Positions 36,573 to 39,436 of a stretch of 64,000 bases of DNA are shown here, in pieces. The notes under the pieces were generated by a model that had not been told where the DNA came from, ran no database searches, and saw nothing but the letters and a program-made list of their open reading frames with translations. A program made the position numbers and the translations under genes. This stretch comes from Aneurinibacillus sp. Ricciae_BoGa-3. Its GTDB lineage: Bacteria; Bacillota; Bacilli; Aneurinibacillales; Aneurinibacillaceae. Every line of letters starts with the position of its first letter. Within the stretch, counting starts at the first letter, position 1. The stretch lies in NCBI RefSeq assembly GCF_028421645.1, contig NZ_CP116887.1, positions 2,482,001 through 2,546,000 of the forward strand, in the 5' to 3' direction.

Positions 36573-36670
36573 TTATGAGAAAATATTCATTGGGGATTAA
36601 ACGGGATTTAATTTTAAAATTAGAATTGGAGCATTCCTGTTAAGGGAAAATTTGAGGTTCGATAAAAAAA

Positions 36671-36733
36671 GTACCTCCTGTTAACATACGAGGTGTCAGC
36701 CTGCAGGCGACCTTTAAATAACAGAGGAGGTAC
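36671..36733 (+). promoter_or_regulatory. Hairpin sequestering the IS110 transposase ribosome binding site
   Basis: GTACCTCCTGTTA at 36671 is complementary to TAACA(GA)GGAGGTAC at 36719-36733, which is the transposase ribosome binding site. An inner AGGT/ACCT and GCC/GGC stem extends the fold. When transcription reads in from outside, the mRNA would hide the Shine-Dalgarno sequence, a known way for mobile elements to avoid impulsive activation. The same region could be part of a guide RNA. Confidence 0.6.
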
Positions 36734-36738
36734 ACACC

Positions 36739-38022
36739 ATGAATTATAAGCAAAATCAGCGTATCGAGCAAATGAATGAGTTTACATTAGTGGTAGGGGT
36801 TGACATCGCCAAGCACAAACATGTTGCGAGGGCGCAGGATTATCGAGGCATCGAAATTGGGAAACCTTGTACGTTTGACAACTCACGGTCTGGATTTACT
36901 CATTTGTGGAAATGGACACGTTCGCTTATGGAAGCCCATTGTAAAACTCACGTTTTATTTGGAATGGAACCGACGGGGCACTACTGGATGCCTCTAGCTC
37001 AGTTTTTACGTCACGAAGGCGTTCCCGTTGTTCTGGTTAATCCGCTGCACGTTAAGCGTAGTAAAGAACTTGATGATAACTCACCAACCAAAAATGATGT
37101 GAAAGATGCCCGTGTCATTGCACAACTTATGAAAGATGGTCGTTACTCTGAACCCCAGATTCCGCAAGGAATCTATGCCGAACTTCGTGTCGGAATGAAC
37201 ATACGAGAACAGCTATCTAAAGACTTATTGCAAGTTAAAGGGCGAATTCACAACTGGCTAGATCGCTATTTCCCTGAGTTTTTAACAGTCTTTAAAGATT
37301 GGGAGGGAAAAGCAGCGCAATCTACACTTCGTCATTTTCCTTTACCAGAGGATATTGTACAGCGAGATGCAGAAGGTATTGTCCAAGTGTGGAGAGTTGA
37401 GGTTAAACGTGCTGTTGGGATAAAAAAAGCCTCTCAGCTTATTGAAGTGGCTCAGAAGTCTATCGGGCTTCAGTCTGGAGTAAGAATGGCCCGACAAGGA
37501 CTCCAAGCTCTGTTGAGCCAACACAAGTTGCTTTGTGAACAGCTTGAAGCGTGTATGGAACAAATCAAGTGTCTGATTCAAGAGATTCCTGGATCCGCTC
37601 AGATGATGACGATCCCTGGTATAGGACTGGTTACAGTGGCAGGCTTCCTTGCGGAAGTCGGGGATCTTATGGGTTACTCTCACCCTCGTCAGATTCAAAA
37701 ATTAGCTGGCTTTAATTTAAAAGAAAACAGTTCAGGCAAGCATAAAGGCAGAACCCGTATTACGAAAAGAGGTCGTCCGAAACTGCGTGCCCTCCTGTTT
37801 AAATGTGTGATGCCACTTGTCGCTAAAAACCAGCAGTTTAAAGCCCTACACCATGAGTTTACTACCCGAGCTGTGAACCCGCTTCGTAAGAAGCAGTCGC
37901 TTATTGCTTTATGTTGTAAATTGATTCGTATTTTCTTTGCATTAGGGCGCAAACAACAGCCATATGACGCTACGCTTGTGAGTAATCCATCTCAACATGC
38001 ACTTAAAATAAACGTTGCGTAA
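36739..38022 (+). mobile_element. IS110-family transposase (DEDD recombinase), intact
   Basis: The 427-residue transposase has an N-terminal RuvC-like DEDD domain (VVGVDIAKHKH, FGMEPTGHYW, KNDVKDARVIAQLMKDGRY). Its C-terminal Tnp domain carries IPGIGLVTVAGFLAEVGD and FNLKENSSGKHKGRTRITKRGR, including the conserved serine. These are the two domains of IS110 enzymes, which make no long terminal inverted repeats and use a bridge or seek RNA. The frame is uninterrupted and ends at 38022. I cannot define the exact element ends; they probably lie between 36600-36670 and 38230-38260. Confidence 0.93.
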
Positions 38023-38260
38023 TCTATTTTTTCTTGAACATACTTAGTTTTTCTCATTCATCATTGTAAAAAAGTAAGCACGGAGAAGCTGAGCGTTATT
38101 TTTTACCATTCGGGCATTTGACCCTGCAAAGGAGCTTTTTCAGCCTCCACCCCACGGATAGGTAGAACGAAGGAATGTAAGGGCCGTAAGGACCCCGTGA
38201 GACATGGGAGGGTACACCACCTGGGCTATTGTGGAGATCCATTGTGCTACCATAATTTTT
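38023..38260 (+). ncRNA. Candidate IS110 bridge/seek RNA region downstream of the transposase
   Basis: This ~240-base noncoding stretch follows the transposase and is rich in short hairpins: GGG-catttga-CCC near 38115, GGAG-N10-CTCC near 38131, GGG-N9-CCC near 38180-38195, and CCAC-N10-GTGG near 38216. It is GC-richer than the flanks. IS110 and IS1111 elements carry a guide RNA in one noncoding end. The position right of the gene would match the IS1111-type arrangement. The call rests on position and foldability only. Confidence 0.45.
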
Positions 38261-38428
38261 ATTTTTTATAAGAAAATTCGGTCACCCCGTTTTTGCCCTT
38301 TTCTTCTATCCATATAAAACCACTTCTTATTATTTTTGGTTTTATAACGTTTGCTGACTTGCAAGAAATACTGAGAAAATAAGAGTATTCAAGAGAAAAA
38401 CTTATTTTATAGAGGGAGGTTAGGAATA

Positions 38429-38824
38429 ATGCTTACAATCCAATGCACAAAAAAGCCTTCGGATGAGTTGAAAGCAGAAGTATCAAAAGTTAAACCTATA
38501 GATACTGATCCGCTTTATTCTTGGCACGCCCATTTATTTTTATATAATCGTCGAAAATGTGTATTATTTATGAATAACAAGACGAGGTATAATTTTATTT
38601 TGGTTGCCCTTAAGAAGGATGATTTTAAAGAGTTTAACAATCTTATTGTAAAGAGCATAGTTGAAAACTTGTCGATGGATGGAGTTGACAAAGTTGTTAT
38701 TGAAAAGTACATACAGAACTGTACTGCGGTTTCATATACCGTTACAAGCGAAAGGGGCATTATAAGTCAAATCAACGAGATGATAATGGCTTCTAAGAAC
38801 AAGATGAGACAAGAGATGACCTAA
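38429..38824 (+). CDS. DUF6933-like hypothetical protein
   Basis: The 131-residue protein begins MLTIQCTKKPSDEL and contains DPLYSWHAHLF, NRRKCVLFMNNKTRY and VVIEKYIQNC, the pattern of a widespread small family of unknown function (DUF6933). GGGAGG precedes the start. A relic of an IS110 transposase begins right after its stop, so the C-terminus may have been changed by that insertion. The function is unknown. The 170 bases before it contain only a weak AT-rich hairpin. Confidence 0.65.
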   Translation: MLTIQCTKKPSDELKAEVSKVKPIDTDPLYSWHAHLFLYNRRKCVLFMNNKTRYNFILVALKKDDFKEFNNLIVKSIVENLSMDGVDKVVIEKYIQNCTAVSYTVTSERGIISQINEMIMASKNKMRQEMT

Positions 38825-38845: not shown

Positions 38846-39436
38846 TTGGACAAAAACGAACATGTAATCAATTTACGGATGCTTATTACCTTGCTCCTTC
38901 AGTACCAAGAACATTTATCTACTTTTGAACAACAGATACACGCCTTGGCAAAAGAGATCAAAGAGTTTAATCTCCTCCTCTCAATACCCGGCATTGGAAA
39001 TAAAATTGTGGCAACCATTTTGTCCGAGATCGAGGAGATTGAACGGTTTGATCATCCGAAGAAGTTGCTTGCTTTTGTAAGCGTTGATCCTAGTGTATAT
39101 ACCTCCGGCAAATTTGTGGCAACATTGAATCAAATTATAAACGTGGCTCCCAACAACTGTGCCGTGCTTGTTATCGGCAAGGCGAACAACAGCTCAGTGA
39201 GCGAAGCAATGGGGGGAGTTTTCCAAAAAAAGTTGAAGGCGTTTGCAAGCGCCCTTATGCCGGAAACCCCAATTGAGGCCGTTAGATTAGCAGAAGAATA
39301 CGCCAAGCAAGGATATAGAGCAGTAAGTTTGGTTTGGGACCAATTGGCAAAGATCCTAAATTTGATGAGGATATCATTCAATGATGCTTTCCCCAGAGGG
39401 TCAGGCTGTGTTTCACAATTTTGGTTACGATACTAA
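38846..39436 (+). pseudogene. Chimeric relic: IS110 transposase C-terminal fragment joined to an enolase-superfamily fragment
   Basis: The single 196-residue frame has two unrelated parts. The first ~95 residues (LLSIPGIGNKIVATILSEIEEIERF, KKLLAFVSVDPSVYTSGKFVAT) are the C-terminal domain of an IS110-type transposase different from the intact one at 36739. From about residue 100 the sequence (GKANNSSVSEAMGGVFQKKLKAF, ALMPETPIEAVRLAEEYAKQGYRAVSL) resembles the middle of mandelate racemase/muconate-lactonizing-type enzymes. Neither part is complete and there is no convincing start signal. It is read as insertion debris. The region 39437-39683 holds no other feature except the moaA ribosome binding site. 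Confidence 0.7.

What the first reader, a model, noticed from the sequence alone, without database searches (positions are those of the whole stretch)
36671..38260. IS110 element with a hidden ribosome binding site and a foldable 3' region that may be its guide RNA
The transposase Shine-Dalgarno sequence is paired with an upstream complement in a long hairpin (36671-36733), and a ~240-base hairpin-rich noncoding end follows the gene. IS110-type enzymes use a bridge/seek RNA encoded in a noncoding end to choose target and donor. The 427-residue transposase is longer than many described members, so its RNA may differ too.
Basis: partly seen in the sequence, partly recalled or inferred. Interest (0 to 1): 0.52.

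Follow-up and report, generated by a model that had tools for sequence, protein, structure and literature searches.

The report
Jumping gene RNA-guided to ribosome sites
This mobile DNA element appears to carry, after its enzyme gene, a guide RNA whose address is the ribosome-binding sequence in front of bacterial genes, and a hairpin before its own gene that would keep it silent when transcription runs in from outside; the parts are known kinds, the combination and its fixed address look new.

Summary
The finding is real, with corrected ends. The element is IS110-family, 36632-38418, with further full and partial copies in the same genome. It sits inside the Shine-Dalgarno (SD) sequence of a DUF6933 gene; two related genomes show the uninterrupted site. 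The 396-nt 3' noncoding end encodes a bridge/seek-type RNA (about 38076-38254). Its structure covaries over 63 relatives, and two guide segments match insertion targets across 102 sites (left guide 466 matches against 290 +/- 13 shuffled; right guide z 9.4). Donor guides changed together with the left tip in two lineages. The left guide reads AAAGGAG, so the RNA address is the SD itself; this is the majority state in its Bacillota family (44 of 69 transposases). The left-end hairpin is also real: it is predicted to hide the transposase SD in read-in transcripts of 76 distinct relatives (median unpaired probability 0.005; shuffled leaders 0.38), while a transcript from the element's own promoter-like site would lack the blocking arm. 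Bridge RNAs, IS900's SD target and RBS-burying leaders (ISPpu9) are known. New here: an SD-programmed guide, its conservation, a 3' RNA with IS1111 guide order but no long subterminal repeats, and the promoter-embedded lock. No expression or transposition was tested.

The parts
36632..38418 (+). IS110-family element, 1787 bp, counting one copy of the AG core at its right end
   Evidence: ends from alignment of own-genome copies with unrelated flanks; uninterrupted sites
36628..36631 (+). GGAG: left half of the SD target with the AG core (36630-36631)
36658..36687 (+). promoter-like site of tnp: -35-like TTCGAT/TCGATA, extended -10 TGTTAACAT (36679-36687); weak in this copy, clear in relatives
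   Evidence: strict scan of the window found none
36671..36683 (+). 5' arm of the hairpin, complementary to the tnp SD region; overlaps the -10
36719..36733 (+). 3' arm of the hairpin with the tnp SD GAGGAGG (36724-36730)
36739..38022 (+). transposase gene, 427 aa, DEDD and Transposase_20 domains
38076..38254 (+). conserved bridge/seek-type RNA (approximate limits)
38096..38107 (+). right target guide (RTG), complementary to the top strand right of the insertion point
38112..38124 (+). small hairpin inside the target loop
38126..38134 (+). left target guide (LTG) GCAAAGGAG, an SD sequence
38172..38177 (+). right donor guide GGAATG, complementary to left tip CATTCC
   Evidence: covariation in L097 and L160/L162/L165
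38181..38195 (+). small hairpin inside the donor loop
38204..38210 (+). left donor guide ATGGGAG, like the right tip GGGAG
   Evidence: hardly varies, so not tested by covariation
38408..38418 (+). right tip TATAGAGGGAG, ends in an SD-like GGGAG
38429..38824 (+). DUF6933 gene whose SD holds the insertion (PF22016)

Best explanation
An IS110-family RNA-guided element. A structured RNA from the 3' noncoding end is proposed to bind the transposase. Its first internal loop reads the target: right guide first (complementary to the top strand), then left guide AAAGGAG, around an AG core. Its second loop reads the two element tips. Because the left guide is an SD sequence, the element enters SD sequences, and its own right tip GGGAG leaves an SD in front of the interrupted gene. 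Insertion is directional, so at a genuine SD the transposase gene points the same way as the host gene and read-in transcription is to be expected. In such a transcript the arm at 36671-36683 pairs with the transposase SD and should block translation; a transcript from the element's own promoter-like site, whose -10 overlaps that arm, starts beyond it and has a freer SD. Shown by sequence: ends, uninterrupted sites, RNA conservation and covariation, guide-target matching, conserved hairpin. Inferred: RNA binding, RNA-guided strand exchange, promoter activity, translational silencing, continued expression of the interrupted gene.
For: Ends and uninterrupted sites. RNA downstream of tnp in 114 of 121 loci, covariation. 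Left guide 466 matches against 289.7 +/- 12.6 shuffled, right guide 338 against 227.3 +/- 11.8; both also hold inside the SD group, 318 against 283.5 +/- 4.5 and 227 against 175.0 +/- 8.5, 0 of 2000 shuffles each. Donor guides follow the left tip in two lineages. DEDD and SG residues align with IS621, fold match to IS621. SD-type sites precede an ORF in 32 of 56, other targets 3 of 30. Hairpin z -4.15; 76 left ends: SD unpaired median 0.005 read-in, 0.376 shuffled leaders, 0.44 native; blocking arm upstream of the inferred start in 76 of 76.
Against: Window RNA alone folds no better than shuffles. The window site mismatches its left guide at two of the five positions next to the core. The right-guide register was picked as best of four, and the GGGCAG group splits between two. 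The excess of gene starts over all WWAGGAG motifs is small, 32 of 56 against 108 of 273, p 0.018. A strict promoter scan of the window found none, and its native transcript SD is only 0.27 unpaired. Shuffles do not remove relatedness. No RNA or protein data.
Confidence: 0.82

Rival explanations
1. The transposase protein itself recognises AGGAG, and the 3' RNA is a regulatory or structural RNA; the guide matches reflect shared SD-like composition.
For: SD-type sites are alike, so part of the match is expected from composition (shuffled mean within the SD group is already 283.5 of 318).
Against: Matches exceed shuffles within the SD group and within the GGGCAG group; odd guides match odd sites (L091, L098, L116); donor guides follow the tips; the family is RNA-guided in IS621 and ISEc11 (PMC11208160, PMC11187229).
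Confidence: 0.06
2. The left-end hairpin is always present in tnp mRNA, because transcription starts upstream (for example at a circle-junction promoter), and it lowers transposase translation constitutively or is opened by an antisense RNA, as proposed for ISPpu9.
For: Junction promoters are reported for the family (PMC11208160, PMC11187229, passages); ISPpu9 has an RBS-burying leader (PMC8450116, passages); the window promoter-like site is weak.
Against: A -35/-10 pair inside the left end scores above shuffles in 54 of 76 left ends, and its start would lie beyond the blocking arm in 76 of 76.
Confidence: 0.25
3. SD targeting is a by-product: AGGAG is a frequent motif between genes, and SD restoration by the right tip has no selected role.
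For: Relatives with other targets have the same GGGAG tip and the same lock; gene starts are only mildly over the motif background.
Against: The SD-type guide is kept in 44 of 69 transposases over deep divergence with few changes.
Confidence: 0.45

Closest known systems
IS621 / ISCro4 bridge-RNA elements (IS110 group; PMC11208160, PDB 8wt6, 9t56)
   Same: DEDD plus Transposase_20 recombinase with matching fold; RNA with a target loop and a donor loop; CT/AG core dinucleotide (CT for IS621 is from the paper, AG here)
   Different: RNA lies 3' of tnp, not in the left end; right guide precedes left guide; address is the SD; complete promoter-like site inside the left end instead of across the circle junction
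IS1111-group seekRNA elements (ISEc11, ISKpn4, ISPa11; PMC11187229)
   Same: RNA from a 3' noncoding region; top-strand guide first
   Different: no long subterminal inverted repeats found
IS900 (IS110 family; PMC8141618 passages, Doran 1997 title only in its reference list)
   Same: target motif CATGNNNNNNTCTCCTT is an SD with a start codon on the other strand
   Different: the insertion orientation relative to the target gene differs by that motif; whether an RNA guide matches it was not tested here; mycobacterial, relation to this family not tested
ISPpu9 (IS110 family, Pseudomonas putida; PMC8450116 passages)
   Same: leader of tnp mRNA folds so as to bury the ribosome-binding site
   Different: there the structure is in the native transcript and an antisense RNA is proposed to open it; here the blocking arm should be absent from the native transcript
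IS10 / IS50 protection from read-in transcription (recalled, no paper read for this point)
   Same: read-in transcripts fold so that the transposase start is blocked, native transcripts do not
   Different: unrelated transposases and no RNA-guided targeting

Membership tests
IS110 family (broad) | DEDD RuvC-like domain plus Transposase_20 domain | tested here: met
   residues aligned with IS621
IS110 family (broad) | guide RNA with target and donor loops in a noncoding end | tested here: met
   by comparative sequence only:
IS110 family (broad) | site-specific, one orientation, no target duplication beyond the core | tested here: met
IS110 family (broad) | circular intermediate and RNA-guided recombination | not testable with these tools
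   needs experiment
IS110 group (narrow) | long left end with the RNA upstream of tnp | tested here: not met
   left end 107 nt, right end 396 nt, RNA 3' of tnp; exceptions are noted in PMC11187229
IS1111 group | RNA in the right end, top-strand guide first | tested here: met
   criterion from PMC11187229
IS1111 group | long subterminal inverted repeats (7-17 bp) | tested here: not met
   13 elements tested, no repeat of that length at a constant place; a short imperfect TTATAG/CTGTAA pair by eye only
IS1111 group | transposase phylogeny | not tested
   no set of named IS110 and IS1111 references was at hand

The most novel reading that the evidence does not exclude
A whole RNA-guided transposon family is held by selection to a functional address, the SD, as a low-cost niche: the right tip restores an SD for the host gene, host transcription then also makes the 3' guide RNA, and the promoter-embedded hairpin keeps the transposase off in those same transcripts, so a settled copy would supply guide RNA but not enzyme.
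Probability: 0.3. Interest if true: 0.75.

Novelty: new variant of a known kind. Interest (0 to 1): 0.55.

Why it matters
Bridge-RNA elements are described as having varied targets, each element or close group its own (PMC11187229). Here one address, the SD, is kept over transposases down to about 41% identity to the window's, from Bacilli to Halanaerobium and Clostridia, with visible natural re-addressing in side branches. That gives a natural series for working out guide rules, an RNA explanation to test for SD targeting as reported for IS900, and a testable idea of how an element that lands downstream of active promoters keeps its transposase silent. A 3' RNA with IS1111 order but without long subterminal repeats also blurs the IS110/IS1111 boundary.

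Tried and rejected
Single-sequence folding of the 3' RNA gave no signal. Rfam had nothing beyond a sub-threshold chrB-b hit inside tnp (18 bits against gathering 36.5). PADLOC gave no match. I first read CAGCCTCC (38141-38148) as the right guide; the alignment showed it to be a stem arm (pairs of helix 1), and the right guide lies 5' of the left guide. A first right-guide register fitted the GGGCAG group but less well the SD group; the shuffle test prefers the next one. Long sTIRs were sought and not found. A strict promoter scan of the window found none. Phage records held no relative by blastn; plasmids held only distant ones. One uninterrupted-site test gave a complication: the flanks of copy L005 are orthologous to two separate places in the sister genome G001, so that copy marks a rearrangement. 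The L003 site had no useful orthologue. A tree against named IS110 and IS1111 references was not made, for want of reference sequences.

Rows dropped before counts: one search missed 7 of 121 loci. One search excluded 11 of the 114 by hand as truncated, N-holding or divergent and collapsed near-copies, leaving 72; of these 63 were aligned, the 9 most divergent being left out. could not parse guides in 11 of 114; one search used 109 rows (103 plus 6 own-genome sites) collapsed to 102, and positions without a known flank are not counted. One search dropped sites with under 200 nt of right flank; two of its 56 SD-type sites hold N. One search used 76 distinct left ends; 4 others were skipped for length or a missing start. 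The genome-contig scan kept the best 80 of 552 relatives.

Full report
What is there. The window holds an IS110-family element at 36632-38418, with GGAG at 36628-36631 as the left half of its target. The genome (G000) has a set of near-identical full and partial copies. Aligning them fixes the ends: copies start ...GGAG|CATTCCTG and end ...TATAGAGGGAG|R, with unrelated flanks outside. The transposase (36739-38022, 427 aa) has both Pfam domains of the family and passes NF033542. It aligns with IS621 across the DEDD positions and the SG motif (the roles of these residues are recalled), and its model matches IS621 best (8wt9_A, E 8.7e-16, TM 0.68 by target; mean pLDDT 80.8, pTM 0.66).

Where it sits. 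Joining the window flanks gives AATTGGAG|GTTAGGAATAATG, the SD and start of the DUF6933 gene at 38429. The uninterrupted gene is present in G003 (84% over 400 nt) and G006 (72% over 405 nt), and the alignments run straight across the junction; G003 reads CTGGAGATTAAGAATAATG. For copy L002 a similar uninterrupted region of the same genome reads AAAAGGAGGGTAACTCTTGGGG. In all nine own-genome copies whose left flank was printed, the junction reads GGAG.

Family sampling. Relatives came from whole-genome searches, 80 loci of named genomes (the best 80 of 552) and 29 virus-collection contigs. I parsed 121 loci.

The 3' RNA. A profile started from the window segment finds a relative downstream of tnp in 114 of 121 loci. 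In 63 aligned RNAs the consensus has two stems, each with an internal loop around a small hairpin. With 21 pairs, 96.8% of cells are standard pairs (shuffled 84.7 +/- 0.5), with 182 cells changed on both sides (52.0 +/- 9.2) and covariation score 0.446 (0.221 +/- 0.009; slid versions at most 0.124). These controls do not remove relatedness. Single-sequence folding of the window RNA shows nothing unusual (z +0.99).

Guides and targets. In the first loop, the segment 3' of the small hairpin (left guide, GCAAAGGAG in the window) matches the left flank ending in the AG core. The segment 5' of it (right guide) is complementary to the right flank. Over 102 distinct sites the left guide scores 466 matches at six positions; shuffled guide-site pairs give 289.7 +/- 12.6 (0 of 2000). 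Within the 68 SD-type sites it is 318 against 283.5 +/- 4.5, and within the 28 GGGCAG-type sites 119 against 106.1 +/- 2.4. The right guide scores 338 against 227.3 +/- 11.8 overall and 227 against 175.0 +/- 8.5 within the SD type, in a register chosen as best of four; in the GGGCAG type two registers share the signal. Telling single cases: L091 guide GGGCCAG, site CGGCCAG; L116 guide CAAGAAAG, site ATAAGAAAG; L098 guide AGGAAAG, site AGGAAAG; the four G004 copies guide AATAGGAG, sites ATAGGAG. Misses exist: the window site differs from its left guide at two of the five positions next to the core, though its right flank pairs at 8 of 11 positions plus two G-U (read by hand); L112 and L159 also differ from their guides.

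Donor guides. The second loop carries GGAATG opposite the left tip CATTCC. Where the tip is CTTCC (L160, L162, L165) the guide reads GGAAG, and where the tip with core is AGCAGTCC (L097) the guide reads GGACTGCT. Against this, some elements with tip CATTCC have GGAAAG or GGAAGG (L043, L111, L126). The left donor guide (TGGGAG) resembles the right tip but hardly varies.

The address is the SD. Of 56 SD-type sites with enough flank, 32 precede an ORF of at least 50 aa starting 3-13 nt after the junction (25 with ATG). For other targets it is 3 of 30 (0 ATG), for random positions 916 of 9420, and for all WWAGGAG motifs in the flanks 108 of 273. Against the motif background the excess is small (Fisher p 0.018), so gene starts are hit mainly because the encoded motif is the SD. 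On a tree of 69 transposases 44 carry an SD-type guide, from Bacillaceae and Paenibacillaceae to Halanaerobium, Caloramator and Desulfitobacterium; the three target states need 4 changes, shuffled mean 21.6 (quick tree without bootstrap). The GGGCAG type sits in one part of the tree. The right tip leaves GGGAG+R before the target gene, so an SD is restored; but relatives with other targets have the same tip.

The hidden ribosome-binding site. The left-end hairpin of the window is strongly predicted (z -4.15, 0 of 200). In 76 distinct left ends the SD is almost fully paired in a transcript entering from outside (median unpaired 0.005, mean 0.087), against a median of 0.376 for shuffled leaders; in a transcript starting after the -10 it is 0.44. 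A -35/-10 pair scores above shuffles (10.0 against 7.9; 54 of 76 at or above the 95th percentile), and in 76 of 76 the blocking arm lies wholly upstream of the inferred start. So the -10 region and the anti-SD arm overlap, and the native transcript should escape a lock that a read-in transcript cannot. The window copy is a weak example (strict scan empty; native 0.27). The lock also occurs in relatives with other targets.

What is known. Bridge and seek RNAs are established for this family (PMC11208160, passages; PMC11187229, first part and passages). The seekRNA paper gives top-strand-first order and a 3' noncoding region for IS1111, sTIR as its mark, and notes 3' regions in some elements without sTIR. 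This element meets the first two and not the third. IS900's target motif CATGNNNNNNTCTCCTT is an SD with start codon on the other strand (PMC8141618, passages). ISPpu9 buries its transposase RBS (PMC8450116, passages). Searches pairing IS110, IS900 or bridge RNA with Shine-Dalgarno, ribosome binding or translation initiation listed no paper that I could see linking a bridge or seek RNA guide to the SD; that library lacks most subscription journals, and I read only the papers named here and PMC3196728 and PMC12892987 (passages).

Verdict. A known family in an unusual variant: an RNA guide with the SD as its address, kept across a broad Bacillota family, with a promoter-embedded translational lock. 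Mechanism steps beyond sequence remain untested.

Noticed in passing
window 38846-39436: Remnant of a different IS110-family transposase (Transposase_20 only) just downstream of the DUF6933 gene.
   Followed up: no
L005 (G000:C1:2266039-2267828): The left and right flanks of this copy are orthologous to two separate places in sister genome G001, so the copy marks a rearrangement, probably by recombination between two copies.
   Followed up: partly
L084-L094, L106-L114, L128-L146: A subgroup targets AACTAAAGGGGCAG|TTTAGTTGAA-like sites, which look palindromic; what this repeated sequence is remains open.
   Followed up: no
L098/L099 and L126/L127, between tnp and the guide RNA: Two lineages share an extra segment (GTGGCTTGACA.GGAGCCTCT.GGGCATG ... 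CATGCCC.CC.CTCCA) that looks like a second conserved hairpin RNA.
   Followed up: no
L006 (G000:C1:2079837-2082921): Copy with its right end interrupted by about 1.37 kb of other DNA.
   Followed up: no
L009/L010 and L011 (G000:C1:3246237-3247565 and 3235081-3235171): A copy with an internal deletion but both ends, and a solo 91-base left end.
   Followed up: no
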